This document shows, piece after piece, positions 111 through 56,563 of a stretch of 64,000 bases of DNA. Position numbers and translations under genes: made by a program. The notes under the pieces are model-generated. The model made no database searches. It had not been told where the DNA came from and saw only the letters and a list, made by a program, of their open reading frames with translations. The stretch is from NCBI GenBank assembly GCA_963924555.1, contig OZ004581.1, positions 9,277,338 through 9,341,337 on the forward strand, read 5' to 3'. The stretch's first letter is position 1. Every line of letters begins with the position of its first letter. The DNA is from Crambe crambe (taxonomy: Eukaryota; Porifera; Demospongiae; Poecilosclerida; Crambeidae).

Positions 111-151
111 TGATAAAACAATATGTTAATGAAGTATAAGTAATGACTTAC

Positions 152-21517: not shown

Positions 21518-21583
21518 AAAAAATGGTGTAGCCCTACTAGAAGTAACCTCCTTCTTTCTCTTTTTCTTCTTCTTATCGCTCAT
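21518..21583 (-). CDS. First coding exon of gene A (MSDKK family)
   Basis: ATG at 21,583 opens 22 codons: MSDKKKKKRKKEV then TSSRATPFF, ending on a whole codon at a GTAAGT donor. The start is chosen because the same ATG-Ser-Asp-Lys-Lys begins genes B and C, and because the GC-rich upstream segment resembles that of the 5.4-kb relic. The lysine run could act as a nuclear or membrane-binding signal, but this is speculation. The next exons downstream are the GAG one-codon exon at 20.41 kb and the array. Confidence 0.72.
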
Positions 21584-34300: not shown

Positions 34301-34698
34301 CAGCATCAGTTATTTTAGTCCAGAACTTTCCTTCCTGGCTGCAGGCCCAGTAACTCTCAGTGGGGCGGAGGGAGAATGTGTCAGCCACATGGGTGCTGTA
34401 GGCTTCACAGGGAAGGGGCAGATTCATCAAGCCATTGAGTAGACTGCTCTTGCCCACACCTCCAGGACCAACGATCATCACACGAGCATATGCAACCTTC
34501 GTTTCACCCTGCCCCAGGGCATTCAAGTAATCCACTGAAAATCAAACATACAAAATAATTAATATCTATCAAAATAAAAATATTACCTTCAGTCCTTGAG
34601 GCTCGAATCTCAATGAAAAAGGATTCAACATGGAAATTCAACATGGAAACGAAGTTGATTCACAAATGAATTATGCACAAAAGACATACACTCACCAC
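31324..34698 (-). CDS. Gene B: Roc-COR GTPase with death domains (3' exons)
   Basis: Exons with matching phases: 34,696-34,698 (GTG), 34,587-34,608, 32,562-34,534, 32,254-32,501, 32,093-32,190, 32,009-32,038, 31,825-31,919, 31,717-31,771, 31,324-31,637. Domain order is as in gene A: Roc (GPGGVGKSS, WDCGGQ, VGSHGDD), COR (DPQWLVKQIA), death-like fold (ELEAIAMEVQ...), coiled coil, linker, death domain (EWEDLGVVLGLSDAEVEKI...PPSWNSLCTAL). Relative to A, several middle exons (14.3-14.8 kb) are collapsed into one 30-base exon. The large exon is about 17.27 kb from its partner and highly similar, so A and B are recent paralogues. The frame is intact. Confidence 0.88.
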
Positions 34699-34814
34699 CT
34701 GAAAATATGAACACCACAACAGTGAAAGTATTATGAGATTCAGTGAGCGAGCATAGACTCTCAGGTCATGACTCAATGTACATGTTATGATTAACAATGC
34801 ATTAATTTTGGTAG

Positions 34815-34851
34815 ACAACATGTAAGTAACAATGCAGAGAGTGAGTCAGTT
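34815..34851 (-). repeat. Stub of array B next to the GTPase exons
   Basis: A partial array unit (CATGTAAGTAACAATGCAGAG ... TCAGTTC) follows the TTAATTTTGGTAGA phrase that also borders array A at 17.5 kb, then breaks off into unrelated sequence. It shows that array B once reached the GTPase exons and was interrupted by the 34.85-36.83-kb segment. Confidence 0.7.
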
Positions 34852-35400
34852 CGATCATGCTGCCTTGCTTGCCAGTTGAAACAGACACACTAGAAGTGTC
34901 CAAATGCAGTTGCAATTCATCACAGCATACTTGAGATAGTTAATCTTCTAATTCAGCGATTAAAAGAATTTGTATTTGCTATGCATGATGACTATCATAT
35001 CATAGGTCCATATTGGGTCCACTTATAAATAATGCCTTTTGTTTTCTGTTGCCATGGTGCTTAGGACTGTATCTCAAATCCCCAGTGTCCATTGTAACAG
35101 GTAAGGGGTCATCATTGGCAGGACTTACATCCACCTTTCGGAATAGCCCTACTTTACCTTACATGGACCGATAATTATGAGTTCCATTATAACTTGATGA
35201 TATGTATGCATGTTGCTACAGAGTGTCTCTATCGGTATTTGAGAGAGCCTCCTTCAGCCATAATTGATCAGTGCAACCCTTACATGAATTTGTTCAAGTT
35301 GGAGAGTACCAACACTCCTGGGCCACAACACTTGCTGCTCCATGAACCTTACATAGTGTGGATAGAGTTTGAAAAAAAGAATTTTACAGTCAAAGCTGGA
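34852..35400. other. Inserted non-coding segment
   Basis: Left part of a roughly 2-kb block lying between the array stub and the main array B. I see no gene; the plus ORF at 35,194-35,493 overlaps a MITE end. Confidence 0.45.
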
Positions 35401-35810
35401 ATCAACAGTACAGTGAAACCTCTGAATCTTGGGACCCATCCTTTCATCCTTAGTATAGAGAGGTTGTCCTCTTTTGGAAGTTATTTTTTATAGAGTGTAA
35501 AGGATGGAGAGGTTTGTCCTCTTTCAGACTGTCCTTTATTCGGAGGTTCCACTGAAGGCAACCAAATCCTTATACTTCTGTAATGCACTTCACTCAACAA
35601 AGTATTAAGAATTAATTACTTCTTTAAAGAATACTTCAGATTACTCTTAAGTATGAAACCTGTATTAAAAGACCACCCAACACCTCTCTTTAAAGACCAC
35701 TAGGTATGTCCCAACATTGATTTTGACCTCTATAAAGAGACCACCTCCATTAAAAGACTTTTAGTGGTTGCTATAGACAGGTTGCACTGTATCAGTATGT
35801 CTGATTGCTG
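35401..35810. mobile_element. MITE-like element(s), pogo/Tigger style
   Basis: Phrases such as ACAGTGAAACCTCTGAAT at the left, GGAGGTTCCACTGAAGG near 35,540 and CAGGTTGCACTGTA at the right have the look of Tc1/pogo-type MITE ends, with internal repeats of GACCACC and CCTCT. It cuts off the eIF3j copy on its downstream side. Element limits are uncertain. Confidence 0.45.
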
Positions 35811-35880
35811 GAGCTCTCATTGATTTATACCCTGTGACTCAGTGTTATCCATCTTGGGGAGAACCTTATCGATCACTCAC

Positions 35881-36298
35881 CTCATACTTGGAGATCTTTT
35901 CTGAAAGTGCATCCTTAAATTTGCTGAATTCCTCGGCCTCAATCCCCCCAGACACCGCAAAGGTCTCCATGGCTATTCTCAGGTCTGACTCATGTTGCAG
36001 CTTCTCTTTCTTCTCTTTTTCCTTCTGCTGACTCAGCACTGGAGTGGTTGCCTTGGCAGCCTCTGCCTCCAGCTCAGCTGCTCTTCTCTTGGCCTTCTTC
36101 TCTTCTATTCGCTCCTCTGAGACTGGTTCCTTCACTTCCTGTGTAAGAGGAAGTAAAAATAACAACTTCCTTCCTTTCTGTCATCTCATCAGACATGGAA
36201 CATGCATGTCTCATGCACTGCACTCACAGCTAAGTCCAAGTCTTCATCTTCCCCCCACTCTCCTGCAAAGCATTTCTCCACATCAAAGTCATCAGCAT
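35881..36298 (-). pseudogene. EIF3J: eIF3j partial gene (exons 2 and 3)
   Basis: Exon 2 (36,228-36,298) encodes DADDFDVEKCF ... GEDEDLDLA. Exon 3 (35,881-36,138) encodes 86 residues: EVKEPVSEER, a long Lys/Glu/Ala helix, then LQHESDLRIAMETF and FKDALSEKISKYE, matching the eIF3j core (ESDLELAKETF, L.DKI..YE). Both exons are in phase 0 at their 3' ends. The start codon region is disrupted by an insertion at 36.59 kb and the 3' end by a MITE, so it cannot give a full protein. Confidence 0.75.
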
Positions 36299-36591
36299 CT
36301 GAAAATGCCACATAAAATGTAACTCAAGCTAACCAATCAGAATCTTCACTGCTGATATCACCAACCATTCAGTAAACTGAGGGGGCTTTATTTGCAAGAC
36401 TATGACTTGGGCCAACCCTCTGGTCTAAACTGTAATCCACCCTTTATTTAAAACAGTTGGGAGATTGAAGATATGTAGCAAACCCATTCACACATGACAT
36501 GTTAGCGGCAAACTAGTTGGCTGGAGATTTAGCTAGAAGGCAGCTGATGTCTAAGGTGAGTACTAAATATTGTCACTTACCCCAGAAGTAG

Positions 36592-36650
36592 TCTCGCGTA
36601 GCCAGACCCTTTCCCGGTTTTTGGCGCGAGGCGGGAAAGGGTTTTATCAA
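36592..36650. mobile_element. Short MITE insertion in eIF3j 5' end
   Basis: GTAGCCAGACCCTTTCCCG and its rough inverse CGGGAAAGGGTTTT flank GGTTTTTGGCGCGAGG. It replaces the ATG region that is intact in the copy at 31.01 kb. Confidence 0.55.
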
Positions 36651-36739
36651 TCGGTAAAGGATCGCTTTTCGCGTTGATTCTTATTTGGCGCGCGCGTATA
36701 TAAACAATAATGAATCATAGCTACAGAACTGTTGATGCC

Positions 36740-36827
36740 ATGGCCAGTCTGAGACCAAGCAGTGGGGTCCTCTTGCTAGGAGTATGCTATCTTCCTCTCT
36801 CGCTCTGCCAGTGGTTCCTGAGGGAGA
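36740..36827 (-). pseudogene. Degenerate SLU7-like last exon, second copy
   Basis: Same sequence as 31,100-31,188. Its acceptor side is cut at 36,827, where the one-codon-exon array begins abruptly. This joint is therefore a recombination or insertion breakpoint. Confidence 0.6.
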
Positions 36828-38129
36828 AGGTACGACAGGGTAAGAGAATAGACAGCATGTAAGTAACAATGCAGAGAGTGAATACGTTCAGAATAACTTA
36901 CTGCCTGAAGGAATGAAATTAAGCATCAAAATACAACAGTGAAGGTACGTCAGGGTAAGAGAATGGACAGCATGTAAGTAACAAAGCAGAGAGTGAGTAC
37001 GTTCAGAATAACTTACCTCCTGAAGGAATGAAATAAAGCATCAAAATAAGATAGTGAAGGTAGGACAGGGTAAGAGAATAGACAGCATGTAAGTAACAAT
37101 GAAGAGAGAGAGTCAGTTCAGAATAACTTACCGCCTGAAGGAATAAAATTAAGCATCAAAATAGAACAGTGAAGGTACAACAGGGTAAGAGAATAGACAG
37201 CATGTAAATAACAAAGCAGAGTGAGTATACAGATATAACTTACTTTCTGAAGGAATAAAATTAAGCATCAAAATACAACAGTGAATGTACGACAGGGTAA
37301 GAGAATAGACAGCATGTAAGTAACAATGAAGAGAGAGAGTCAGTTCAGAATAACTTACCGCCTGAAGGAATAAAATTAAGCATCAAAATAGAACAGTGAA
37401 GGTACAACAGGGTAAGAGAATAGACAGCATGTAACAATGCAGAGAGTGAGTACGTTCAGAATAACTTACTGCCTGAAGGAATGAAATTAAGCATCAAAAT
37501 ACAAGAGTGAAGGTACGTCAGGGTAAGAGAATAGACAGCATGTAAGTAACAAAGCAGAGAGTGAGTACATTCAGAATAACTTACCTCCTGAAGGAATGAA
37601 ATTAAGCATCAAAATAAGATAGTGAAGGTAAGACAGGGTAAGAGAATAGACAGCATGTAAGTAACAATGAAGAGAGAGAGTCAGTTCAGAATAACTTACC
37701 GCCTGAAGGAATAAAATTAAGCATCAAAATAGAACAGTGAAGGTACAACAGGGTAAGAGAATAGACAGCATGTAAGTATCAATGCAGAGAGTGAGTCAGT
37801 TCAGGATAACTTACCTTCTAAAGGAATGAAATTAAGCATCGAAATACGACAGTGAAGGTACGACAGGGTAAGAGAATAGACAGCATGTAAGTAACAATGA
37901 AGAGAGTGAGTCTGTACAAAATAACTTACCAACTGAAGGAATAAAATTAAGCATCAAAATACAACAGTGAAGGTACGACAGGGTAAGAGAATAGACAGCA
38001 TGTAAGTAACAATGCAGAGAGTGAGTCAGCTCAGAGTAACTTACCTCCTGAAGGAATGAAATTAAGCATCAAAATACGACAGTGAAGGTAAGACAGGGTA
38101 AGAGAATAGACAGCATGTAAGTAACAATG

Positions 38130-41100
38130 CAGAGAGTAAGTATGTTCAAAAATACTTACCTCCTGAAGGAATGAAATTAAGCATCAAAATACGATGACAG
38201 GGTAAGAGAATAGACAGCATGTAAGTAACAATGCAGAGAGTGAGTCAGTTAAGAATAACTTACTCGCTGAAGGATGAAATTAAGCATCAAAATACGACGA
38301 CAGGGTAAGAGAATAGACAGCATGTAAGTAACAATGCAGAGAGTGAGTCAATTCAGAATAACTTACTATCTGAGGAATGAAATTATGCATCAAAATACGA
38401 CAGTGAAGGTAAGACAGGGTAAGAGAATAGACAGCATGTAAGTAACAATGCAGAGAGTGAGTCAGTTCAGAATAACTCACCTCCTGAAGAAATGAAATTA
38501 AGCATCAAAATACGACGACAGGGTAAGAGAATAGACAGCATGTAAGTAACAATGCAGATAGTGAGTATGTTCAGAATAACTTACCTTCTGAAGGAATGAA
38601 ATTAAGCATCAAAATACGACGACAGGGTAAGAGAATAGACAGCATGTAAGTAACAATGCAGAGAGTGAGTCAGTTCAGAGTAACTCACCTCCTGAAGAAA
38701 TGAAATTAAGCATCAAAATATGATGACAGGGTAAGAGAATAGACAGCATGTAAGTAACAATGCAGAGAGTGAGTCAATTCAGAATAACTTACTATCTGAA
38801 GGAATGAAATTAAGCATCAAAATACGACAGTGAAGGTAAGACAGGGTAAGAGAATAGACAGCATGTAAGTAACAATGCAGAGAGTGAGTCAGTTCAGAAT
38901 AACTCACCTCCTGAAGAAATGAAATTAAGCATCAAAATACGACGACAGGGTAAGAGAATAGACAGCATGTAAGTAACAATGCAGATAGTGAGTATGTTCA
39001 GAATAACTTACCTTCTGAAGGAATGAAATTAAGCATCAAAATACGACGACAGGGTAAGAGAATAGACAGCATGTAAGTAACAATGCAGAGAGTGAGTCAG
39101 TTCAGAGTAACTCACCTCCTGAAGAAATGAAATTAAGCATCAAAATATGACGACAGGGTAAGAGAATAGACAGCATGTAAGTAACAATGCAGAGAGTGAG
39201 TCAATTCAGAATAACTTACTATCTGAAGGAATGAAATTAAGCATCAAAATACGACAGTGAAGGTAAGACAGGGTAAGAGAATAGACAGCATGTAAGTAAC
39301 AATGCAGAGAGTGAGTCAGTTCAGAATAACTCACCTCCTGAAGAAATGAAATTAAGCATCAAAATACGACGACAGGGTAAGAGAATAGACAGCATGTAAG
39401 TAACAATGCAGATAATGAGTATGTTCAGAATAACTTACCTTCTGAAGGAATGAAATTAAGCATCAAAATACGACGACAGGGTAAGAGAATAGACAGCATG
39501 TAAGTAACAATGCAGAGAGTGAGTCAGTTCAGAATAACTTACTATCTGAAGGAATGAAATTAAGCATCAAAATACGACAGTGAAGGTAAGATAGGGTAAG
39601 AGAATAGACAGCATGTAAGTAACAATGGAGAGAGTGAGTACGTTCAGAATAACTTACTCGCTGAAGGAATGAAATTAAGCATCGAAATACGACGACAGGG
39701 TAAGAGAATAGACAGCATGTAAGTAACAATGCAGAGAGTGAGTCAATTCAGAATAACTTACTATCTGAAGGAATGAAATTAAGCATCAAAATACGACAGT
39801 GAAGGTAAGACAGGGTAAGAGAATAGACAGCATGTAAGTAACAATGCAGAGAGTGAGTCAGTTCAGAATAACTCACCTCCTAAAGAAATGAAATTAAGCA
39901 TCAAAATACGACGACAGGGTAAGAGAATAGACAGCATGTAAGTAACAATGCAGATAGTGAGTATGTTCAGAATAACTCACCTTCTGAAGAAATGAAATTA
40001 AGCATCAAAATACGACGACAGGGTAAGAGAATAGACAGCATGTAAGTAGCAATGCAGAGAGTGAGTACATTCAGAATAACTTACTCGCTGAAGGAATGAA
40101 ATTAAGCATCAAAATACGACAGTGAAGGTAAGACAGGGTAAGAGAATAGACAGCATGTAAGTAACAATGCAGAGAGTGAGTACGTTCAGAATAACTTACT
40201 CGCTGAAGGAATGAAATTAAGCATCAAAATACGACAGTGAAGGTAAGATAGGGTAAGAGAATAGACAGCATGTAAGTAACAATGCAGAGAGTGAGTCAGT
40301 TCAGAATAATTCACCTCCTGAAAAAATGAAATTAAGCATCAAAATACGACGACAGGGTAAGAGAATAGACAGCATGTAAGTAACAATGCAGAGAGTGAGT
40401 CAATTCAGAATAACTTACTATCTGAAGGAATGAAATTAAGCATCAAAATACGACAGTGAAGGTAAGACAGGGTAAGAGAATAGACAACATGTAAGTAACA
40501 ATGCAGAGAGTGAGTCAGTTCAGAATAACTCACCTCCTGAAGAAATGAAATTAAGCATCAAAATATGACGACAGGGTAAGAGAATAGACAGCATGTAAGT
40601 AACAATGCAGAGAGTGAGTACATTCAGAATAACTTACTTGCTGAAGGAATGAAATTAAGCATCAAAATACGACGACAGGGTAAGAGAATAGACAGCATGT
40701 AAGTAACAATGCAGAGAGTGAGTACATTCAGAATAACTTACTCGCTGAAGGAATGAAATTAAGCATCAAAATATGACAGTGAAGGTAAGACAGGGTAAGA
40801 GAATAGACAGCATGTAAGTAACAATGCAGAGAGTGAGTACGTTCAGAATAACTTACTCGCTGAAGGAATGAAATTAAGCATCAAAATACGACAGTGAAGG
40901 TAAGATAGGGTAAGAGAATAGACAGCATGTAAGTAACAATGCAGAGAGTAAGTATGTTCAAAAATACTTACCTCCTGAAGGAATGAAATTAAGCATCAAA
41001 ATACGATGACAGGGTAAGAGAATAGACAGCATGTAAGTAACAATGCAGAGAGTGAGTCAGTTAAGAATAACTTACTCGCTGAAGGATGAAATTAAGCATC

Positions 41101-43752
41101 AAAATACGACGACAGGGTAAGAGAATAGACAGCATGTAAGTAACAATGCAGAGAGTGAGTCAATTCAGAATAACTTACTATCTGAGGAATGAAATTATGC
41201 ATCAAAATACGACAGTGAAGGTAAGACAGGGTAAGAGAATAGACAGCATGTAAGTAACAATGCAGAGAGTGAGTCAGTTCAGAATAACTCACCTCCTGAA
41301 GAAATGAAATTAAGCATCAAAATACGACGACAGGGTAAGAGAATAGACAGCATGTAAGTAACAATGCAGATAGTGAGTATGTTCAGAATAACTTACCTTC
41401 TGAAGGAATGAAATTAAGCATCAAAATACGACGACAGGGTAAGAGAATAGACAGCATGTAAGTAACAATGCAGAGAGTGAGTCAGTTCAGAGTAACTCAC
41501 CTCCTGAAGAAATGAAATTAAGCATCAAAATATGACGACAGGGTAAGAGAATAGACAGCATGTAAGTAACAATGCAGAGAGTGAGTCAATTCAGAATAAC
41601 TTACTATCTGAAGGAATGAAATTAAGCATCAAAATACGACAGTGAAGGTAAGACAGGGTAAGAGAATAGACAGCATGTAAGTAACAATGCAGAGAGTGAG
41701 TCAGTTCAGAATAACTCACCTCCTGAAGAAATGAAATTAAGCATCAAAATACGACGACAGGGTAAGAGAATAGACAGCATGTAAGTAACAATGCAGATAG
41801 TGAGTATGTTCAGAATAACTTACCTTCTGAAGGAATGAAATTAAGCATCAAAATACGACGACAGGGTAAGAGAATAGACAGCATGTAAGTAACAATGCAG
41901 AGAGTGAGTCAGTTCAGAGTAACTCACCTCCTGAAGAAATGAAATTAAGCATCAAAATATGACGACAGGGTAAGAGAATAGACAGCATGTAAGTAACAAT
42001 GCAGAGAGTGAGTCAATTCAGAATAACTTACTATCTGAAGGAATGAAATTAAGCATCAAAATACGACAGTGAAGGTAAGACAGGGTAAGAGAATAGACAG
42101 CATGTAAGTAACAATGCAGAGAGTGAGTCAGTTCAGAATAACTCACCTCCTGAAGAAATGAAATTAAGCATCAAAATACGACGACAGGGTAAGAGAATAG
42201 ACAGCATGTAAGTAACAATGCAGATAGTGAGTATGTTCAGAATAACTTACCTTCTGAAGGAATGAAATTAAGCATCAAAATACGACGACAGGGTAAGAGA
42301 ATAGACAGCATGTAAGTAACAATGCAGAGAGTGAGTCAGTTCAGAATAACTTACTATCTGAAGGAATGAAATTAAGCATCAAAATACGACAGTGAAGGTA
42401 AGATAGGGTAAGAGAATAGACAGCATGTAAGTAACAATGGAGAGAGTGAGTACGTTCAGAATAACTTACTCGCTGAAGGAATGAAATTAAGCATCGAAAT
42501 ACGACGACAGGGTAAGAGAATAGACAGCATGTAAGTAACAATGCAGAGAGTGAGTCAATTCAGAATAACTTACTATCTGAAGGAATGAAATTAAGCATCA
42601 AAATACGACAGTGAAGGTAAGACAGGGTAAGAGAATAGACAGCATGTAAGTAACAATGCAGAGAGTGAGTCAGTTCAGAATAACTCACCTCCTAAAGAAA
42701 TGAAATTAAGCATCAAAATACGACGACAGGGTAAGAGAATAGACAGCATGTAAGTAACAATGCAGATAGTGAGTATGTTCAGAATAACTCACCTTCTGAA
42801 GAAATGAAATTAAGCATCAAAATACGACGACAGGGTAAGAGAATAGACAGCATGTAAGTAGCAATGCAGAGAGTGAGTACATTCAGAATAACTTACTCGC
42901 TGAAGGAATGAAATTAAGCATCAAAATACGACAGTGAAGGTAAGACAGGGTAAGAGAATAGACAGCATGTAAGTAACAATGCAGAGAGTGAGTACGTTCA
43001 GAATAACTTACTCGCTGAAGGAATGAAATTAAGCATCAAAATACGACAGTGAAGGTAAGATAGGGTAAGAGAATAGACAGCATGTAAGTAACAATGCAGA
43101 GAGTGAGTCAGTTCAGAATAATTCACCTCCTGAAAAAATGAAATTAAGCATCAAAATACGACGACAGGGTAAGAGAATAGACAGCATGTAAGTAACAATG
43201 CAGAGAGTGAGTCAATTCAGAATAACTTACTATCTGAAGGAATGAAATTAAGCATCAAAATACGACAGTGAAGGTAAGACAGGGTAAGAGAATAGACAAC
43301 ATGTAAGTAACAATGCAGAGAGTGAGTCAGTTCAGAATAACTCACCTCCTGAAGAAATGAAATTAAGCATCAAAATATGACGACAGGGTAAGAGAATAGA
43401 CAGCATGTAAGTAACAATGCAGAGAGTGAGTACATTCAGAATAACTTACTTGCTGAAGGAATGAAATTAAGCATCAAAATACGACGACAGGGTAAGAGAA
43501 TAGACAGCATGTAAGTAACAATGCAGAGAGTGAGTACATTCAGAATAACTTACTCGCTGAAGGAATGAAATTAAGCATCAAAATATGACAGTGAAGGTAA
43601 GACAGGGTAAGAGAATAGACAGCATGTAAGTAACAATGCAGAGAGTGAGTACGTTCAGAATAACTTACTCGCTGAAGGAATGAAATTAAGCATCAAAATA
43701 CGACAGTGAAGGTAAGATAGGGTAAGAGAATAGACAGCATGTAAGTAACAAT
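38130..43752. repeat. 2,812-bp higher-order tandem duplication inside array B
   Basis: The block 38,130-40,941 is repeated at 40,942-43,752 with almost no change (rare landmarks such as TAAGTATGTTCAAAAATAC at about 38.14 and 40.95 kb). A third, shortened copy begins near 48.73 kb and lacks about 427 bp. Confidence 0.85.
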
Positions 43753-43759
43753 GCAGAGA

Positions 43760-46700
43760 GTGAGTCAGTTCAGAATAATTCACCTCCTGAAAAAATGAAA
43801 TTAAGCATCAAAATACGACGACAGGGTAAGAGAATAGACAGCATGTAAGTAACAATGCAAAGAGTGAGTCAATTCAGAATAACTTACTATCTGAAGGAAT
43901 GAAATTAAGCATCAAAATACGACAGTGAAGGTAAGACAGGGTAAGAGAATAGACAACATGTAAGTAACAATGCAGAGAGTGAGTCGGTTCAGAATAACTC
44001 ACCTCCTGAAGAAATGAAATTAAGCATCAAAATATGACGACAGGGTAAGAGAATAGACAGCATGTAAGTAACAATGCAGAGAGTGAGTACATTCAGAATA
44101 ACTTACTCGCTGAAGGAATGAAATTAAGCATCAAAATACGACGACAGGGTAAGAGAATAGACAGCATGTAAGTAACAATGCAGAGAGTGAGTACATTCAG
44201 AATAACTTACCTGCTGAAGGAATGAAATTAAGCATCAAAATACAACAGTGAAGGTACAATAGGGTAAGAGAATAGACAGCATGTAAGTAACAATGCAGAG
44301 AGTGAGTCAGTTCAGAATAACTTACTTGCTGAAGGAATGAAATTAAGCATCAAAATACAACAGTGAAGGTACGACAGGGTAAGAGAATAGACAGCTTGTA
44401 AGTAACAATGCAGAGAGTGAGTCAGTTCAGAATAACATACTTGCTAAAGGAATGAAATTAAGCATCAAAATACGACGACAGGGTAAGAGAATAGACATCA
44501 TGTAAGTAACAATGCAGAGAGTGAGTCAGTTCAGGATAACTTACCTTCTAAAGGAATGAAATTAAGCATCGAAATACGACAGTGAAGGTACAATAGGGTA
44601 AGAGAATAGACAGCATGTAAGTAACAATGCAGAGAGTGAGTCCGTTCAGAATAACTTACTCGCTGAAGGAATGAAATTAAGCATCAAAATACAACAGTGA
44701 AGGTACGGTAGGGTAAGAGGATAGACAGCATGTATGTAACAATGCAGAGAGTGAGTATGTTCAGGATAACTTACATACTGAAAAAATGAAATTAAGCATC
44801 AAAATATGACAGTGAAGGTACGACAGGGTAAGAGAATAGACAGCATGTAAGTAACAATGCAGAGAGTGAGTCTGTACAAAATAACTTACCAACTGAAGGA
44901 ATGAAATTAAGCATCAAAATATGACAGTGAAGGTACGACAGGATAAGAGAATAGACAGCATGTAAGTAACAATGCAGAGAGTGAGTACGTTCAGAATAAC
45001 TTACCTCCTGAAGGAATGAAATTAAGCATCAAAATACGACAGTGAAGGTAAGATAGGGTAAGAGAATAGACAGCATGTAAGTAACAATGCAGAGAGTGAG
45101 TACGTTCAGAATAACTCACCTCCTGAAGAAATGAAATTAAGCATCAAAATACGACGACAGGGTAAGAGAATAGACAGCATGTAAGTAACAATGCAGAGAG
45201 TGAGTCAGTTCAGAATAACTCACCAACTGAAGGAATGAAATTAAGCATCGAAATACGATGACAGGGTAAGAGAATAGACAGCATGTAAGTAACAATGCAG
45301 AGAATGAGTACATTCAGAATAACTTACTCGCTGAAGGAATGAAATTAAGCATCAAAATACGACAGTGAAGGTAAGACAGGGTAAGAGAATAGACAGCATG
45401 TAAGTAACAATGCAGAGAGTGAGTACGTTCAGAATAACTTACCAACTGAAGGAATGAAATTAAGCATCAAAATACGACAGTGAAGGTAAGACAGGGTAAG
45501 AGAACAGACAGCATGTAAGTAACAATGCAGAGAGTGAGTACGTTCAGAATAACTTACTCGCTGAAGGAATGAAATTAAGCATCAAAATACAATAGTGAAG
45601 GTATGACAGGGTAAGAGAATAGACAGCTTGTAAGTAATAATGCAGAGAGTGAGTTAGTTCAGGATAACTTACCTTCTAAAGGAATGAAATTAATCATCGA
45701 AATATGACAGTGAAGGTACGACAGGGTAAGAGAATAGACAGCATGTAAGTAACAATGCAGAGAGTGAGTCAATTCAAGATAACTTACACACTGAAGGAAT
45801 AAATTTAAACATCAAAATACAACAGTGAAGGTACGACAGGGTAAGAGAATAGACAGCATGTAAGTAACAATGCAGAGAGTGAGTCAGCTCAGAGTAACTT
45901 ACCCACTGAAGGAATGAAATTAAGCATCAAAATACGACAGTGAAGGTAAGACAGGGTAAGAGAATAGACAGCATGTAAGTAACAATGCAGAGAGTAAGTA
46001 TGTTCAGAATAACTTACCTCCTGAAGGATTGAAATTAAGCATCAAAATACGACGACAGGGTAAGAGAATATACAGCATGTAAATAACAATACAGAGAGTG
46101 AGTCAGTTCAGAATAACTCACCTCCTGAAGAAATGAAATTAAGCATCAAAATACGACGACAGGGTAAGAGAATAGACAGCATGTAAGTAACAATGCAGAG
46201 AGTGAGTCAATTCAGAATAACTTACTATCTGAAGGAATGAAATTAAGCATCAAAATACGACAGTGAAGGTAAGACAGGGTAAGAGAATAGACAGCATGTA
46301 AGTAACAATGCAGAGAGTGAGTCAGTTCAGAATAACTCACCTCCTGAAGAAATGAAATTAAGCATCAAAATACGACGACAGGGTAAGAGAATAGACAGCA
46401 TGTAAGTAACAATGCAGATAGTGAGTATGTTCAGAATAACTTACCTTCTGAAGGAATGAAATTAAGCATCAAAATACGACGACAGGGTAAGAGAATAGAC
46501 AGCATGTAAGTAACAATGCAGAGAGTGAGTCAGTTCAGAATAACTCACTTCCTGAAGAAATGAAATTAAGCATCAAAATACGACGACAGGGTAAGAGAAT
46601 AGACAGCATGTAAGTAACAATGCAGAGAGTGAGTCAATTCAGAATAACTTACTATCTGAAGGAATGAGATTAAGCATCAAAATACGACAGTGAAGGTAAG

Positions 46701-49700
46701 ACAGGGTAAGAGAATAGACAGCATGTAAGTAACAATGCAGAGAGTGAGTCAGTTCAGAATAACTCACCTGAAGAAATGAAATTAAGCATCAAAATATGAC
46801 GACAGGGTAAGAGAATAGACAGCATGTAAGTAACAATGCAGATAGTGAGTATGTTCAGAATAACTTACCTTCTGAAGGAATGAAATTAAGCATCGAAATA
46901 CGACGACAGGGTAAGAATAGACAGCATGTAAGTAACAATGCAGATAGTGAGTATGTTCAGAATAACTTACCTTCTGAAGGAATGAAATTAAGCATCAAAA
47001 TACGACGACAGGGTAAGAATAGACAGCATGTAAGTAACAATGCAGAGAGTGAGTCAGTTCAGAATAACTTACTATCTGAAGGAATGAGATTAAGCATCAA
47101 AATACGACAGTGAAGGTAAGACAGGGTAAGAGAATAGACAGCATGTAAGTAACAATGCAGAGAGTGAGTCAGTTCAGAATAACTCACCTGAAGAAATGAA
47201 ATTAAGCATCAAAATATGACGACAGGGTAAGAGAATAGACAGCATGTAAGTAACAATGCAGATAGTGAGTATGTTCAGAATAACTTACCTTCTGAAGGAA
47301 TGAAATTAAGCATCAAAATATGACAGTGAAGGTAAGATAGGGTAAGAGAATAGACAGCATGTAAGTAACAATGCAGAGAGTGAGTACGTTCAGAATAACT
47401 TACTCGCTGAAGGAATGAAATTAAGCATCAAAATACAACAGTGAAGGTACGTCAGGGTAAGAGAATAGACAGCATGTAAGTAACAAAGCAGAGAGTGAGT
47501 ACGTTCAGAATAACTTACCTCCTGAAGGAATGAAATTAAGCATCAAAATAGAACAGTGAAGGTACAACAGGGTAAGAGAATAGACAGCATGTAACAATGC
47601 AGAGAGTGAGTACATTCAGAATAACTTACCTCCTGAAGGAATGAAATTAAGCATCAAAATAAGATAGTGAAGGTAAGACAGGGTAAGAGAATAGACAGCA
47701 TGTAAGTAACAATGAAGAGAGAGAGTCAGTTCAGAATAACTTACCGCCTGAAGGAATAAAATTAAGCATCAAAATAGAACAGTGAAGGTACAACAGGGTA
47801 AGAGAATAGACAGCATGTAAGTATCAATGCAGAGAGTGAGTCAGTTCAGGATAACTTACCTTCTAAAGGAATGAAATTAAGCATCGAAATACGACAGTGA
47901 AGGTACGACAGGGTAAGAGAATAGACAGCATGTAAGTAACAATGAAGAGAGAGAGTCAGTTCAGAATAACTTACCGCCTGAAGGAATAAAATTAAGCATC
48001 AAAATAGAACAGTGAAGGTACAACAGGGTAAGAGAATAGACAGCATGTAACAATGCAGAGAGTGAGTACGTTCAGAATAACTTACTGCCTGAAGGAATGA
48101 AATTAAGCATCAAAATACAAGAGTGAAGGTACGTCAGGGTAAGAGAATAGACAGCATGTAAGTAACAAAGCAGAGAGTGAGTACATTCAGAATAACTTAC
48201 CTCCTGAAGGAATGAAATTAAGCATCAAAATAAGATAGTGAAGGTAAGACAGGGTAAGAGAATAGACAGCATGTAAGTAACAATGAAGAGAGAGAGTCAG
48301 TTCAGAATAACTTACCGCCTGAAGGAATAAAATTAAGCATCAAAATAGAACAGTGAAGGTACAACAGGGTAAGAGAATAGACAGCATGCAGAGAGTGAGT
48401 CAGTTCAGGATAACTTACCTTCTAAAGGAATGAAATTAAGCATCGAAATACGACAGTGAAGGTACGACAGGGTAAGAGAATAGACAGCATGTAAGTAACA
48501 ATGAAGAGAGTGAGTCTGTACAAAATAACTTACCAACTGAAGGAATAAAATTAAGCATCAAAATACAACAGTGAAGGTACGACAGGGTAAGAGAATAGAC
48601 AGCATGTAAGTAACAATGCAGAGAGTGAGTCAGCTCAGAGTAACTTACCTCCTGAAGGAATGAAATTAAGCATCAAAATACGACAGTGAAGGTAAGACAG
48701 GGTAAGAGAATAGACAGCATATAAGTAACAATGCAGAGAGTAAGTATGTTCAAAAATACTTACCTCCTGAAGGAATGAAATTAAGCATCAAAATACGATG
48801 ACAGGGTAAGAGAATAGACAGCATGTAAGTAACAATGCAGAGAGTGAGTCAGTTAAGAATAACTTACTCGCTGAAGGATGAAATTAAGCATCAAAATACG
48901 ACGACAGGGTAAGAGAATAGACAGCATGTAAGTAACAATGCAGAGAGTGAGTCAATTCAGAATAACTTACTATCTGTGGAATGAAATTATGCATCAAAAT
49001 ACGACAGTGAAGGTAAGACAGGGTAAGAGAATAGACAGCATGTAAGTAACAATGCAGAGAGTGAGTCAGTTCAGAATAACTCACCTCCTGAAGAAATGAA
49101 ATTAAGCATCAAAATACGACGACAGGGTAAGAGAATAGACAGCATGTAAGTAACAATGCAGATAGTGAGTATGTTCAGAATAACTTACCTTCTGAAGGAA
49201 TGAAATTAAGCATCAAAATACGACGACAGGGTAAGAGAATAGACAGCATGTAAGTAACAATGCAGAGAGTGAGTCAGTTCAGAGTAACTCACCTCCTGAA
49301 GAAATGAAATTAAGCATCAAAATATGACGACAGGGTAAGAGAATAGACAGCATGTAAGTAACAATGCAGAGAGTGAGTCAATTCAGAATAACTTACTATC
49401 TGAAGGAATGAAATTAAGCATCAAAATACGACAGTGAAGGTAAGACAGGGTAAGAGAATAGACAGCATGTAAGTAACAATGCAGAGAGTGAGTCAGTTCA
49501 GAATAACTCACCTCCTGAAGAAATGAAATTAAGCATCAAAATACGACGACAGGGTAAGAGAATAGACAGCATGTAAGTAACAATGCAGATAGTGAGTATG
49601 TTCAGAATAACTTACCTTCTGAAGGAATGAAATTAAGCATCAAAATACGACGACAGGGTAAGAGAATAGACAGCATGTAAGTAACAATGCAGAGAGTGAG

Positions 49701-52700
49701 TCAGTTCAGAATAACTTACTATCTGAAGGAATGAAATTAAGCATCAAAATACGACAGTGAAGGTAAGATAGGGTAAGAGAATAGACAGCATGTAAGTAAC
49801 AATGGAGAGAGTGAGTACGTTCAGAATAACTTACTCGCTGAAGGAATGAAATTAAGCATCGAAATACGACGACAGGGTAAGAGAATAGACAGCATGTAAG
49901 TAACAATGCAGAGAGTGAGTCAATTCAGAATAACTTACTATCTGAAGGAATGAAATTAAGCATCATAATACGACAGTGAAGGTAAGACAGGGTAAGAGAA
50001 TAGACAGCATGTAAGTGAGAGTGAGTCAGTTCAGAATAACTCACCTCCTAAAGAAATGAAATTAAGCATCAAAATACGACGACAGGGTAAGAGAATAGAC
50101 AGCATGTAAGTAACAATGCAGATAGTGAGTATGTTCAGAATAACTCACCTTCTGAAGAAATGAAATTAAGCATCAAAATACGACGACAGGGTAAGAGAAT
50201 AGACAGCATGTAAGTAGCAATGCAGAGAGTGAGTACATTCAGAATAACTTACTCGCTGAAGGAATGAAATTAAGCATCAAAATACGACAGTGAAGGTAAG
50301 ACAGGGTAAGAGAATAGACAGCATGTAAGTAACAATGCAGAGAGTGAGTACGTTCAGAATAACTTACTCGCTGAAGGAATGAAATTAAGCATCAAAATAC
50401 GACAGTGAAGGTAAGATAGGGTAAGAGAATAGACAGCATGTAAGTAACAATGCAGAGAGTGAGTCAGTTCAGAATAATTCACCTCCTGAAAAAATGAAAT
50501 TAAGCATCAAAATACGACGACAGGGTAAGAGAATAGACAGCATGTAAGTAACAATGCAGAGAGTGAGTCAATTCAGAATAACTTACTATCTGAAGGAATG
50601 AAATTAAGCATCAAAATACGACAGTGAAGGTAAGACAGGGTAAGAGAATAGACAACATGTAAGTAACAATGCAGAGAGTGAGTCAGTTCAGAATAACTCA
50701 CCTCCTGAAGAAATGAAATTAAGCATCAAAATATGACGACAGGGTAAGAGAATAGACAGCATGTAAGTAACAATGCAGAGAGTGAGTACATTCAGAATAA
50801 CTTACTTGCTGAAGGAATGAAATTAAGCATCAAAATACGACGACAGGGTAAGAGAATAGACAGCATGTAAGTAACAATGCAGAGAGTGAGTACATTCAGA
50901 ATAACTTACTCGCTGAAGGAATGAAATTAAGCATCAAAATATGACAGTGAAGGTAAGACAGGGTAAGAGAATAGACAGCATGTAAGTAACAATGCAGAGA
51001 GTGAGTACGTTCAAAATAACTTACTCGCTGAAGGAATGAAATTAAGCATCAAAATACGACAGTGAAGGTAAGATAGGGTAAGAGAATAGACAGCATGTAA
51101 GTAACAATGCAGAGAGTGAGTCAGTTCAGAATAATTCACCTCCTGAAAAAATGAAATTAAGCATCAAAATACGACGACAGGGTAAGAGAATAGACAGCAT
51201 GTAAGTAACAATGCAAAGAGTGAGTCAATTCAGAATAACTTACTATCTGAAGGAATGAAATTAAGCATCAAAATACGACAGTGAAGGTAAGACAGGGTAA
51301 GAGAATAGACAACATGTAAGTAACAATGCAGAGAGTGAGTCGGTTCAGAATAACTCACCTCCTGAAGAAATGAAATTAAGCATCAAAATATGACGACAGG
51401 GTAAGAGAATAGACAGCATGTAAGTAACAATGCAGAGAGTGAGTACATTCAGAATAACTTACTCGCTGAAGGAATGAAATTAAGCATCAAAATACGACGA
51501 CAGGGTAAGAGAATAGACAGCATGTAAGTAACAATGCAGAGAGTGAGTACATTCAGAATAACTTACCTGCTGAAGGAATGAAATTAAGCATCAAAATACA
51601 ACAGTGAAGGTACAATAGGGTAAGAGAATAGACAGCATGTAAGTAACAATGCAGAGAGTGAGTCAGTTCAGAATAACTTACTTGCTGAAGGAATGAAATT
51701 AAGCATCAAAATACAACAGTGAAGGTACGACAGGGTAAGAGAATAGACAGCTTGTAAGTAACAATGCAGAGAGTGAGTCAGTTCAGAATAACATACTTGC
51801 TAAAGGAATGAAATTAAGCATCAAAATACGACGACAGGGTAAGAGAATAGACATCATGTAAGTAACAATGCAGAGAGTGAGTCAGTTCAGGATAACTTAC
51901 CTTCTAAAGGAATGAAATTAAGCATCGAAATACGACAGTGAAGGTACAATAGGGTAAGAGAATAGACAGCATGTAAGTAACAATGCAGAGAGTGAGTCCG
52001 TTCAGAATAACTTACTCGCTGAAGGAATGAAATTAAGCATCAAAATACAACAGTGAAGGTACGGTAGGGTAAGAGGATAGACAGCATGTATGTAACAATG
52101 CAGAGAGTGAGTATGTTCAGGATAACTTACATACTGAAAAAATGAAATTAAGCATCAAAATATGACAGTGAAGGTACGACAGGGTAAGAGAATAGACAGC
52201 ATGTAAGTAACAATGCAGAGAGTGAGTCTGTACAAAATAACTTACCAACTGAAGGAATGAAATTAAGCATCAAAATATGACAGTGAAGGTACGACAGGAT
52301 AAGAGAATAGACAGCATGTAAGTAACAATGCAGAGAGTGAGTACGTTCAGAATAACTTACCTCCTGAAGGAATGAAATTAAGCATCAAAATACGACAGTG
52401 AAGGTAAGATAGGGTAAGAGAATAGACAGCATGTAAGTAACAATGCAGAGAGTGAGTACGTTCAGAATAACTCACCTCCTGAAGAAATGAAATTAAGCAT
52501 CAAAATACGACGACAGGGTAAGAGAATAGACAGCATGTAAGTAACAATGCAGAGAGTGAGTCAGTTCAGAATAACTTACCAACTGAAGGAATGAAATTAA
52601 GCATCGAAATACGATGACAGGGTAAGAGAATAGACAGCATGTAAGTAACAATGCAGAGAGTGAGTACATTCAGAATAACTTACTCGCTGAAGGAATGAAA

Positions 52701-54050
52701 TTAAGCATCAAAATACGACAGTGAAGGTAAGACAGGGTAAGAGAATAGACAGCATGTAAGTAACAATGCAGAGAGTGAGTACGTTCAGAATAACTTACCA
52801 GCTGAAGGAATGAAATTAAGCATCAAAATACGACAGTGAAGGTAAGACAGGGTAAGAGAACAGACAGCATGTAAGTAACAATGCAGAGAGTGAGTACGTT
52901 CAGAATAACTTACTCGCTGAAGGAATGAAATTAAGCATCAAAATACAATAGTGAAGGTATGACAGGGTAAGAGAATAGACAGCTTGTAAGTAATAATGCA
53001 GAGAGTGAGTTAGTTCAGGATAACTTACCTTCTAAAGGAATGAAATTAATCATCGAAATATGACAGTGAAGGTACGACAGGGTAAGAGAATAGACAGCAT
53101 GTAAGTAACAATGCAGAGAGTGAGTCAATTCAAGATAACTTACACACTGAAGGAATAAATTTAAACATCAAAATACAACAGTGAAGGTACGACAGGGTAA
53201 GAGAATAGACAGCATGTAAGTAACAATGCAGAGAGTGAGTCAGCTCAGAGTAACTTACCTCCTGAAGGAATGAAATTAAGCATCAAAATACGACAGTGAA
53301 GGTAAGACAGGGTAAGAGAATAGACAGCATGTAAGTAACAATGCAGAGAGTAAGTATGTTCAGAATAACTTACCTTCTGAAGGATTGAAATTAAGCATCA
53401 AAATACGACGACAGGGTAAGAGAATATACAGCATGTAAATAACAATACAGAGAGTGAGTCAGTTCAGAATAACTCACCTCCTGAAGAAATGAAATTAAGC
53501 ATCAAAATACGACGACAGGGTAAGAGAATAGACAGCATGTAAGTAACAATGCAGAGAGTGAGTCAATTCAGAATAACTTACTATCTGAAGGAATGAAATT
53601 AAGCATCAAAATACGACAGTGAAGGTAAGACAGGGTAAGAGAATAGACAGCATGTAAGTAACAATGCAGAGAGTGAGTCAGTTCAGAATAACTCACCTCC
53701 TGAAGAAATGAAATTAAGCATCAAAATACGACGACAGGGTAAGAGAATAGACAGCATGTAAGTAACAATGCAGATAGTGAGTATGTTCAGAATAACTTAC
53801 CTTCTGAAGGAATGAAATTAAGCATCAAAATACGACGACAGGGTAAGAGAATAGACAGCATGTAAGTAACAATGCAGAGAGTGAGTCAGTTCAGAATAAC
53901 TCACTTCCTGAAGAAATGAAATTAAGCATCAAAATACGACGACAGGGTAAGAGAATAGACAGCATGTAAGTAACAATGCAGAGAGTGAGTCAATTCAGAA
54001 TAACTTACTATCTGAAGGAATGAAATTAAGCATCAAAATATGACAGTGAA
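43760..54050. repeat. About 7.36-kb higher-order repeat inside array B
   Basis: Blocks around 43.8-46.7 kb and 51.1-54.0 kb align at a constant offset of 7,356 bp, marked by rare variants (ACAGCTTGTA at 44,391 and 51,747; AACATACTTGC at 44.44 and 51.79 kb). Both blocks carry the same order of triplets, with a few exceptions. Confidence 0.85.
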
Positions 54051-56063
54051 GGTAAGATAGGGTAAGAGAATAGACAGCATGTAAGTAACAATGCAGAGAG
54101 TGAGTACGTTCAGAATAACTTACTCGCTGAAGGAATGAAATTGAGCATCAAAATACAACAGTGAAGGTACGTCAGGGTAAGAGAATAGACAGCATGTAAG
54201 TAACAAAGCAGAGAGTGAGTACGTTCAGAATAACTTACCTCCTGAAGGAATGAAATTAAGCATCAAATAGAACAGTGAAGGTACAACAGGGTAAGAGAAT
54301 AGACAGCATGTAACAATGCAGAGAGTGAGTACATTCAGAATAACTTACTGCCTGAAGGAATGAAATTAAGCATCAAAATACAACAGTGAAGGTACGTCAG
54401 GGTAAGAGAATAGACAGCATGTAAGTAACAAAGCAGAGAGTGAGTACATTCAGAATAACTTACCTCCTGAAGGAATGAAATTAAGCATCAAAATAAGATA
54501 GTGAAGGTAAGACAGGGTAAGAGAATAGACAGCATGTAAGTAACAATGAAGAGAGAGAGTCAGTTCAGAATAACTTACCGCCTGAAGGAATAAAATTAAG
54601 CATCAAAATAGAACAGTGAAGGTACAACAGGGTAAGAGAATAAACAGCATGTAAGTATCAATGCAGAGAGTGAGTCAGTTCAGGATAACTTACCTTCTAA
54701 AGGAATGAAATTAAGCATCGAAATACGACAGTGAAGGTACGACAGGGTAAGAGAATAGACAGCATGTAAGTAACAATGAAGAGAGTGAGTCTGTACAAAA
54801 TAACTTACCAACTGAAGGAATGAAATTAAGCATCAAAATACGACAGTGAAGGTACGACAGGATAAGAGAATAGACAGCATGTAAGTAACAATGCAGAGAG
54901 TGAGTACGTTCAGAATAACTTACCTCCTGAAGGAATGAAATTAAGCATCAAAATACGACAGTGAAGGTAAGATAGGGTAAGAGAATAGACAGCATGTAAG
55001 TAACAATGCAGAGAGTGAGTACATTCAGAATAACTTACTCGCTGAAGGAATGAAATTAAGCATCAAAATATGACGACAGGGTAAGAGAATAGACAGCATG
55101 TAAGTAACAATGCAGAGAGTGAGTCAGTTCAGAATAACTCACCTCCTAAAAAATTAAATTAAGCATCAAAATACGACGACAGGGTAAGAGAATAGACAGC
55201 ATGTAAGTAACAATGCAAAGAGTGAGTACATTCAGAATAACTTACTCGCTGAAGGAATGAAATTAAGCATCAAATACGACAGTGAAGGTAAGACAGGGTA
55301 AGAGAATAGACAGCATGTAAGTAACAATGCAGAGAGTGAGTACGTTCAGAATAACTTACTCGCTGAAGGAATGAAATTAAGCATCAAAATATGACGACAG
55401 GGTAAGAGAATAGACAGCATGTAAGTAACAATGCAGAGAGTGAGTCAGTTCAGAATAACTCACCTCCTGAAGAAATGAAATTAAGCATCAAAATACGACA
55501 GTAAAAGTACAGCAGGGTAAGAGAACAGACAGCATGTAAGTAACAAAATGCAGAGAGTGAGTTTATTCAGAATAGCTTACCCGCTGAAGGAATAAATTAA
55601 GCATCAGTGACAGTATGACAGGGTAAGAGAATAGACAGCATGTGAGTAACGATGTAGAGTGTGAGTTGGTTCAGAATAACTTACCGGCTGAAGGCATCAA
55701 AATACGACAGGGTAAGAGAATAGACAGCATGTAAGTAACAATGCAGAGAGTAAGTACTTTCAGAAAAACTTACCAACTGAAGGAATGAAATTAAGCATCA
55801 AAATACGACAATGAACAGGGTAAGAAAATAGACAGCATGTGAGTAACAATGTAGAGTGTGAGTTGGTTCAGAATAAAGCATCAAAATACAACAATGAAGG
55901 TACAACAGGGTAAGAGAATAGACAGCATGTAAGTAATAGTGCTGAAAGTTGTCAAGAATAACTCACATCCTGAAGGATCTAAATATGTCAATGAAGGTAT
56001 GACAGGGTAAGATAATGAGAAGTGATAAAACAATATGTTAATGAAGTATAAGTAATGACTTAC

Positions 56064-56122
56064 CAGGAGAAGGGGTAATAAGTTCCAACATCAAATTGAG
56101 TGTGTATGGTGTGAAAGAACAT
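56064..56122 (-). other. Exon-like segment, gene B version
   Basis: Same as 152-210 (MFFHTIHTQFDVG...): ATG, 19 codons and two bases, then GTAAGT, with no clear acceptor. Confidence 0.35.
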
Positions 56123-56160
56123 GATGCCAAATATAATAATGTCAGTCTTGAATGACTCAC

Positions 56161-56163
56161 CTC
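56161..56163 (-). CDS. One-codon exon (GAG) between exon 1 and array, gene B
   Basis: Acceptor ending TTTCAG, GAG, then GTGAGT. The same codon is in the same relative position in genes A and C. Confidence 0.55.
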
Positions 56164-56488
56164 CTGAAAGAAAACATTGATACACATAATTCAGCACTTT
56201 CTAATCAATAAATATTCCAGACACAATCTTGAAACTTCCTTCCTTTTTTGATAAAGTGTTGACAAGTGAGAATTGGCCCCACCCGTACACATGGGCCACA
56301 TAGGCACACTGCAGTACAGCACAAGCTTCACTTCAGGTGAGGAAGGAATGAGCTTCCAAGTCATTACCAGTGGTGGGTTACATTGGTACACTCTCTATAA
56401 TCAATACTCCCCAACTAAATGAGCTGGTGTCACACCTTAGCCCCTAGTCCCTAGTCCCTAGCTACCTTTTTCATGTGAATGCACTCAC

Positions 56489-56563
56489 AAAATATGGTTC
56501 AGCTCTGCTAGAAGTAGCCTTCTTCTCTGCTTTTTCATTCTCTTCACCTTTTTTATCACTCAT
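56489..56563 (-). CDS. First coding exon of gene B (MSDKK family)
   Basis: ATG at 56,563 opens 25 codons, MSDKKGEENEKAEKK then ATSSRAEPYF, ending on a whole codon at GTGAGT. It differs from gene C's exon by a few substitutions only. It is the nearest upstream start for array B and the GTPase exons at 34.5 kb. If all pieces are spliced, the transcript unit spans about 25 kb with well over 170 introns. Confidence 0.7.

What the first reader, a model, noticed from the sequence alone, without database searches (positions are those of the whole stretch)
36828..56563. A 19-kb array of 3-base, one-codon exons feeding a GTPase/death-domain gene
Every unit of the tandem array carries, on the gene strand, an AG acceptor and a GT donor separated by exactly three bases, and those three bases are the most variable part of the unit. 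Exon 1 upstream ends in phase 0 and the exons toward the GTPase also start in phase 0, so 172 successive codons could be added one by one. Short introns (about 100 nt) would allow intron-definition splicing of such tiny exons. Very small exons are known singly in animals; a hypervariable array of this size is not something I know of. It could encode a long variable N-terminal segment or, by skipping, a large set of isoforms.
Basis: partly seen in the sequence, partly recalled or inferred. Interest (0 to 1): 0.97.

Follow-up and report, generated by a model that had tools for sequence, protein, structure and literature searches.

The report
Proteins spelled by one-codon exon arrays
In this animal genome, long stretches of dozens of proteins appear to be written one amino acid at a time, each amino acid sitting in its own three-letter exon between introns of about 100 letters; RNA data are still needed to prove it.

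Summary
The window array (36826-56163, minus strand) has 172 units with AG|NNN|GT at exactly three bases, plus two zero-base units. Genome-wide, 3,433 places match YTTYAGNNNGTRAGTTATT, against 4 for the reversed pattern.

The triplets behave as translated, spliced codons. Stops: 0 of 1,133 where composition predicts 132; 8 of 3,433 genome-wide. C-ending codons: 8 of 1,133 against 280 of 1,461 in two neighbouring Roc-COR exons; AGN codons, which would create a frame-breaking acceptor, are also avoided. Triplets differ about 20 times more often than flanks. Exon 1 and four kinds of downstream exon can be read in phase 0.

37 exon-1-like places lie in a 1.2-Mb cluster. Arrays precede Roc-COR genes and ORFs with ZU5, Ig and Death domains.

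Correction: here a 2-kb eIF3j segment separates the 19-kb array from the Roc gene, so that link is uncertain; the 23-unit array (17553-19913) joins its Roc gene directly. Serial inclusion of all codons is inferred; no transcript data were available.

The parts
56489..56563 (-). exon 1, MSDKKGEENEKAEKKATSSRAEPYF, ends phase 0 at GTGAGT
   Evidence: 37 related places in C1 8.16-9.37 Mb
56161..56163 (-). first one-codon exon GAG (E)
55967..55969 (-). second one-codon exon GAT (D)
36826..55776 (-). main array of one-codon exons from TTG (55774-55776) to GCA (36902-36904): 170 intact 3-base units (172 with GAG and GAT) and two zero-base units at 47187 and 46767
34850..36826 (-). segment with truncated eIF3j gene (ORF 35866-36180) between the array and the Roc gene; 93% and 86% identical, in two pieces, to a stretch 3' of another Roc gene
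   Evidence: (eIF3 profile just under cut-off)
34795..34854 (-). remnant of an array intron beside the Roc gene
   Evidence: read by eye
34696..34698 (-). one-codon exon GTG (V)
   Evidence: by eye
34587..34608 (-). 22-base exon IRASRTE, phase 0 in, phase 1 out
   Evidence: by eye
32250..34534 (-). Roc-COR exon
31324..31704 (-). Death domain ORF
21518..21583 (-). exon 1 of second gene, MSDKKKKKRKKEVTSSRATPFF
20411..20413 (-). one-codon exon GAG of second gene
   Evidence: by eye
17553..19913 (-). second array, 23 one-codon exons (RVDDNPLYISPSPLYYYLDKPRR)
17412..17414 (-). one-codon exon GTG of second gene
17316..17337 (-). IRASRTE exon of second gene
   Evidence: by eye
15155..17262 (-). Roc-COR exon of second gene
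13642..13947 (-). Death domain ORF of second gene
749..823 (-). exon 1 of third gene, MSDKKGEENEETEKKATSSRAEPYF
55..251 (-). first one-codon exons (GAG 249-251, GAT 55-57) of a third array of 193 units, nearly all outside the window

Best explanation
Each array is a string of one-codon exons. The transcript starts with exon 1 (phase 0), and the spliceosome removes the ~100-base introns one after another. Each removal adds one codon and leaves a new GTAAGT donor three bases beyond the joint, as in recursive splicing but keeping one codon per step. The result is an N-terminal string (23 to 193 units in the eight arrays read; charged helix-like, or Ser-rich) joined in frame to a further part: Roc-COR, coiled-coil or membrane exons, near ORFs with ZU5, Ig and Death domains. 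Because every unit carries exactly one codon with its own intron, gain, loss or conversion of a unit changes the protein by one amino acid without breaking the frame, so the strings can evolve fast. Shown by sequence: architecture, length constraint, near-absence of stops, splice-fitted codon choice, compatible phase. Inferred: transcription, serial inclusion, and a role as a variable segment of self/non-self or immune-type receptors.
For: 3,433 matches to AG-3-GT with this context against 4 for the reversed pattern. Within the eight arrays: 808 places with 3 bases and 2 with 0; the only other readings are 3 of 9 bases (the GTG exon read on to a later GT) and 1 of 12 (a GAT unit read from an earlier AG), while introns run 63-216 bases in all residues mod 3. 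Genome-wide exact patterns with 0-2 bases have 7 matches and with 4-9 bases 7, none in the arrays. Stops 0 of 1,133 (132 expected; 0 of 719 distinct contexts, 81 expected) and 8 of 3,433; sense look-alikes TTA+TCA 108. CGA 121, CAA 18, TGA 0; CGG 23, TGG 7. Codon choice against two Roc-COR exons: NNC 8/1133 vs 280/1461, NNG 655/1133 vs 278/1461, Arg AGR 13/165 vs 39/68, Ser AGY 0/170 vs 46/107; genome-wide AGN 21 and NNC 24 of 3,433. Phase 0 can be read at exon 1 and at four kinds of downstream exon (by eye). Matching units lie beside a Roc family only about 45% identical, on C11.
Against: No RNA or protein data. 10 of 1,146 units have a destroyed acceptor AG (some would shift the frame if the next AG were used), and 1 more has no acceptor. 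One of eight exon-1 copies (array A4) lacks a base at its joint and so has no donor. 8 stop triplets exist. 9 of 23 Roc matches on C1 contain in-frame stops. Hydrophobic periodicity of the strings is weak (lag 4 z 1.4-2.0, three arrays), so their order is not proven to matter. NGT codons, which I also expected to be avoided, are common on C11 (60 of 70 matches). The one C11 stretch read (5 kb) has no array. Accurate splicing of about 170 successive 3-base exons has no precedent that I know of (recalled). Function in recognition is inference from domain names.
Confidence: 0.78

Rival explanations
1. The codons are real exons but are used alternatively: each transcript includes one or a subset of the one-codon exons, so one gene yields very many isoforms, somewhat as in mutually exclusive exon clusters. 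Any subset stays in frame.
For: All exons are symmetrical, so every subset is readable. Stop avoidance and splice-fitted codons are expected here too. GAG, AAG and CAG (269 of 1,133) place a second AG three bases on, which would allow zero-base use. An ACTTAC motif able to pair with the donor stands in 731 of 812 introns, and RNAalifold on 60 of 278 distinct 112-base introns predicts just that pairing (-3.46; 3 of 60 column shuffles as low), which could mask donors.
Against: Array A3 can be read in phase into ordinary coiled-coil exons of like composition, which favours a joined string. Arrays differ in composition as whole strings, though duplication alone could do this.
Confidence: 0.17
2. 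The triplets are a recursive-splicing ladder: the units help to remove a 19-kb intron stepwise and the codons are tolerated by-products with little protein function.
For: A 3-base gap between acceptor and donor resembles a ratchet point; two units are exact zero-base AG|GT points.
Against: Triplets differ 20 times more often than flanks (0.212 against 0.0103 per site, 789 pairs) and amino-acid makeup differs between arrays; arrays of 23 or 37 units span only 2.4 and 4.1 kb, so a ladder is hardly needed there.
Confidence: 0.08
3. Satellite DNA: a tandem repeat whose unit happens to hold AG-3-GT and is never spliced.
For: The units are a tandem repeat with block duplications.
Against: Near-absence of stops, fixed length 3, avoidance of C-ending and AGN triplets, compatible phase at both ends, and matching units upstream of related genes on another contig.
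Confidence: 0.02

Closest known systems
Micro-exon genes (MEGs) of schistosomes (PMC4350168, passages read)
   Same: Most of the coding region is very small symmetrical exons, allowing protein variation by splicing.
   Different: No homology was tested. As I recall, MEG exons are several codons long and not a tandem array of near-identical units. Here each exon is one codon and matches number in the thousands.
Single 3-base microexons: Drosophila homothorax micro-Ex8 (PMC7392893, abstract and outline); RPS24 with three microexons (PMC11162997, search listing only)
   Same: Shows that a spliceosome can include a 3-base exon.
   Different: One or a few such exons in a gene, not an array.
Recursive splicing at ratchet points (PMC8605326, abstract)
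   Same: Acceptor and donor are juxtaposed and the donor is re-formed after each step.
   Different: Ratchet points add no bases; here each step would add one codon.
Plant microexons of 1-15 bases (PMC8831610, passages)
   Same: Includes 1-base exons with conserved GTRAGT donors.
   Different: Conserved in the cases read, not hypervariable arrays.
Coding minisatellites / tandem-repeat proteins (recalled)
   Same: Length and content change by unit gain, loss and conversion.
   Different: Here the coding part is 3 of about 115 bases; the rest is intron.
ROCO proteins, Roc-COR (Pfam)
   Same: Downstream part of the window genes.
   Different: The array-coded N-terminal string.

Membership tests
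ROCO (Roc-COR) protein with Death domain | Roc and COR-A domains in tandem | tested here: met
   COR-A 4.4e-15 and Roc 3.7e-09 (32253-34541); 2.2e-16 and 2.3e-09 (15158-17269)
ROCO (Roc-COR) protein with Death domain | Death domain in the same gene | tested here: inconclusive
   Death ORFs downstream on the same strand at 31324-31704 (4.4e-07) and 13642-13947 (6.6e-05); splice link not shown
Schistosome micro-exon gene (MEG) | most of the coding region in very small symmetrical exons | tested here: inconclusive
   True of the array part; the Roc-COR part is one ORF of about 700 codons
Schistosome micro-exon gene (MEG) | sequence relation to a MEG family, secreted product | not tested
   no MEG sequences compared
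Recursive splicing ratchet point | zero-base AG|GT joint | tested here: not met
   3 bases at 808 places, 0 at 2 in the eight arrays; works like, but is not, a classic ratchet point
Mutually exclusive exon cluster (Dscam type) | competing conserved RNA pairings | tested here: inconclusive
   RNAalifold on a gapped set of 60 diverse introns returned 0.0 for data and shuffles alike (uninformative). On 60 of 278 distinct 112-base introns it predicts one 6-pair helix, donor with ACUUAC, -3.46 against -1.05 (sd 1.15), 3 of 60 shuffles as low. No competing pairing was seen.
Mutually exclusive exon cluster (Dscam type) | one exon chosen per transcript | not testable with these tools
   needs RNA
Microexon (spliced very small exon) | inclusion in mRNA | not testable with these tools
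   no RNA data held

The most novel reading that the evidence does not exclude
A gene family in which long protein segments are encoded one codon per exon by thousands of exons, read by serial (recursive-type) splicing, so that the genome stores a variable amino-acid string as an editable list of one-codon cassettes attached to interchangeable Death-domain receptors: a codon-resolution diversity system, perhaps used for self/non-self recognition.
Probability: 0.6. Interest if true: 0.99.

Novelty: categorically new. Interest (0 to 1): 0.97.

Why it matters
It would move the assumed lower bound on how coding sequence can be divided: exons of one codon, by the thousand, in series. It makes testable how a spliceosome handles acceptor and donor sites three bases apart for 170 steps, and gives an animal gene family whose protein sequence can change one residue at a time by recombination of units. 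Ordinary gene prediction and short-read aligners would be expected to miss it (inference), so such arrays may lie unnoticed in other genomes.

Tried and rejected
Satellite without splicing: rejected on the stop, length, codon-choice and phase tests. Donor-masking hairpin: an ACTTAC motif complementary to GTAAGT stands in 731 of 812 introns. A first fold of 60 diverse gapped introns gave 0.0 for the data and for every shuffle, so it says nothing. A second on 60 of 278 distinct 112-base introns gave just this helix, 3 of 60 shuffles as low. The pairing shows no compensatory changes that I found, so I do not build on it. When I found that the first fold was uninformative, I moved the odds slightly (serial string 0.80 to 0.78, alternative use 0.15 to 0.17). 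Helical periodicity as proof that codon order matters: weak. Unit-level alignment of arrays A0/A7 and A4/A6: introns are too alike to place units reliably (15 of 84 and 52 of 165 triplet differences include misplacements), so not used. The block-duplication counts (triplets 19/330 to 43/528 against introns 34/11843 to 90/19125) carry the same risk and are used only for the trend. Avoidance of NGT codons as a second frame rule: 10 of 70 matches are on C1 but 60 on C11, so not claimed. Naming the species: a search by assembly size gave no match among the 15 of 639 papers listed, and a sponge-genome search was not conclusive; 'sponge' is my guess, untested. Paper searches for arrays of microexons or one-codon exons showed no such array in the titles and abstracts listed (20 of 46 listed); they cover only the held open-licence library. 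Thr codons are almost absent (1 of 1,133, against 78 of 1,461 in the Roc exons); I have no explanation.
Full report
What is in the window. Tandem Repeats Finder reports one array at 36826-55701, period 115, 171.8 copies, and a second at 17509-19972. Read on the minus strand, each unit is ...TTTCATTCCTTCAG|NNN|GTAAGTTATTCTGAAC.... In the main array 174 donors were found from 56160 to 36901; 172 have AG exactly three bases upstream, and two (47187 and 46767) have AG directly on GT. The second array has 23 units with largely other triplets. A third array begins at the left edge.

The family. The window lies at C1:9277338-9341337 of a 143-Mb assembly in 119 contigs. I read 260 contiguous kb (C1:9130001-9390000) and found eight arrays, here A0 to A7, of 45, 174, 23, 193, 62, 137, 151 and 37 units. 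Adding 13 further stretches (44.6 kb) gives 1,148 candidate units: 1,133 with AG-3-GT, 2 with a zero-base exon, 10 with a mutated acceptor AG, 1 without an acceptor, and 2 chance hits outside arrays. Whole-genome counts of YTTYAGNNNGTRAGTTATT are 258 forward and 3,175 reverse, against 1 and 3 for the reversed pattern. The stretch holding exon 1 has 43 matching places, 40 of them in C1 8.16-9.37 Mb, which make 37 after joining three adjacent pieces; two of the 37 match little or none of the coding part. The exon 1 of the 23-unit gene is not in that list and was found only in the fetched region, so the number is a lower bound. Roc-COR matches number 23 on C1 8.14-9.36 Mb (one is the query, the others 82-91% identical; 9 of 23 hold in-frame stops) and 19 on C11 (41-53% identical over the longer matches). 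C11 has the same units: 60 of the 70 genome-wide NGT-type matches lie at C11:7.13-7.28 Mb, among its Roc genes. In the one C11 stretch that I could read (5 kb, L051) there is a single unit-like sequence with a disturbed donor and a CAG|CAT|GTGAG site, but no array; units in the same gap lie further on, at 5875494, 5877655 and 5877866.

Are the triplets codons? First, stops. None of the 1,133 triplets is a stop, where the base composition of the three positions predicts 132; after collapsing identical contexts it is 0 of 719 against 81. These expectations assume independent positions and units, so the ratio matters more than any probability. For the window arrays alone it is 0 of 172 against 8.3 and 0 of 23 against 1.1. 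Genome-wide there are 3 TGA/TAA and 5 TAG matches, 8 of 3,433, while the sense look-alikes TTA and TCA have 108. CpG decay offers a natural control: beside CGA (121) stands CAA 18 times but TGA never, while beside CGG (23) stands TGG 7 times. Second, length. Inside the eight arrays the scan gives 3 bases at 808 places and 0 at 2; the only other readings are three of 9 bases (the GTG exon read on to a later GT) and one of 12 (a GAT unit read from an earlier AG). Introns shorter than 217 bases run from 63 to 216, with remainders 520, 218 and 74 modulo 3 (longer gaps were set aside). Genome-wide, the exact pattern TTCAGN{0,2}GTAAGTTATT has 7 matches and N{4,9} has 7, none in the arrays.

Are they spliced? 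Codon choice differs from that of the two neighbouring Roc-COR exons (1,461 codons). Ending in C: 8 of 1,133 against 280. Ending in G: 655 of 1,133 against 278. Arg as AGR: 13 of 165 against 39 of 68. Ser as AGY: 0 of 170 against 46 of 107 (the units are not independent, so the P values, 3e-15 and lower, are only indicative; its C-ending test used 281 for 280). G before the donor is the animal consensus and C the poorest (recalled). AGN after the acceptor AG would offer a second acceptor two bases on and break the frame. NAG codons, whose second AG is three bases on and frame-safe, are common (GAG 214, AAG 51, CAG 4). Genome-wide AGN is 21 and NNC 24 of 3,433. Against this, NGT codons, which would offer a frame-breaking donor, have 10 matches on C1 but 60 on C11.

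Phase and partners. An exon 1 starting MSD was read for all eight arrays (a ninth, similar stretch at window 5408 has no such start). Seven end in phase 0 at GTGAGT or GTAAGT; the one before A4 lacks one base at that joint (TTTTTGAGTG) and so has no donor. Downstream exons differ between arrays, and by my reading each can start in phase 0: GTG, then IRASRTE (TRASRTE in A0 and A7), then Roc-COR (A0, A2, A7); a transmembrane-like exon YCTATVFALLAIVLIILMF (A4, A6); coiled-coil exons VIEVHEKNKEIDHLKQ... (A3); ITDSSSELEVIAMESLKQ (A5). ORFs beyond these hold ZU5 (8e-06; two others under cut-off), Ig (2.2e-10), COR-A (9.7e-10) and Death (4.7e-06; three others under cut-off). Whether those ORFs belong to the same transcripts as the arrays is not shown. 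The strings differ in kind: E/R/K/I-rich in the window (A1), E/L/R in A5, Ser-rich in A4 and A6, mixed in A3.

Variation. For 789 nearest-neighbour unit pairs the flanks differ at 0.0103 per site and the triplets at 0.212 per site; 3-base control blocks in the flanks give 0.003-0.017. In long block duplications the contrast is 0.3-0.5% against 5.8-8.1%. Many changes involve two or three bases at once. Exchange between units with near-identical introns would explain this without a special mutator, with selection keeping the triplets diverse. That is inference, and unit-level insertions may inflate the multi-base class.

The link to the GTPase in this window. In A0, A2 and A7 the GTG exon lies 159, 138 and 159 bases after the last array donor; in the window's 19-kb array it lies 2,203 bases after. 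The extra stretch (about 34850-36826) holds a truncated eIF3j gene on the same strand (Pfam 7.1e-06, just under cut-off) and matches, at 93% and 86% in two pieces, a stretch 3' of the A0 Roc gene. A remnant array intron lies at 34795-34854. The simplest reading is that the 19-kb array and the Roc gene at 32250 belonged to two neighbouring genes brought together by a deletion; this is inference. Splicing across the insert would keep the frame, but this is the weakest point of the finding as given. The 23-unit gene is the clean example.

How it most likely works. Introns of about 100 bases are recognised across the intron (inference). After each step the joint leaves the next donor three bases downstream, so splicing would run stepwise, as in recursive splicing but adding one codon (inference). 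Any skipped unit leaves the frame intact, and the same property lets units be gained, lost or exchanged in evolution. Most introns (731 of 812) carry ACTTAC, able to pair with the donor; a fold of 60 same-length introns predicts that pairing and 3 of 60 shuffles do as well, so a role in timing the steps is possible but unproven. The Death, ZU5, Ig and Roc-COR partners suggest receptor or signalling proteins of the immune or self-recognition type; this rests on domain names alone.

Known cases. Single 3-base exons exist (homothorax, PMC7392893, abstract and outline). Plants have conserved 1-base exons (PMC8831610, passages). Schistosome MEGs have many small symmetrical exons (PMC4350168, passages). 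Recursive splicing uses juxtaposed acceptor and donor sites (PMC8605326, abstract). Searches for arrays of microexons or one-codon exons listed none, within the held library and by title and abstract only.

Noticed in passing
window 34850-36826, 30579-31198, 13329-13472; genome C1:9356314-9358378: Several partial copies of an eIF3j gene region are interspersed with the Roc genes of the cluster.
   Followed up: partly
array units, plus strand of the window: The opposite strand also carries CAG|NNN|GTAAGT, 181 times in the window, 168 of them with CAT, but without an obvious pyrimidine tract. Its GTAAGT is the complement of the ACTTAC motif.
   Followed up: partly
1,133 array codons: Thr codons are nearly absent (1), while CpG codons TCG (136) and CGA (121) are the favourites for Ser and Arg although little used in the two Roc exons (1 and 5).
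   Followed up: partly
intron positions +17/+18 of the units: A two-base spot that varies nearly as much as the codon (1.59 and 1.27 bits); function unknown.
   Followed up: no
window 23768-24508; 61436-62206: Transposase-like ORFs: DDE_3 (7.4e-22) and TNP-like RNase H (7.9e-22).
   Followed up: no
genome C1:6.606-6.707 Mb, plus strand: Another group of units with exon-1-like copies, on the opposite strand.
   Followed up: no
window 56707-57625: 459-base tandem duplication upstream of exon 1.
   Followed up: no
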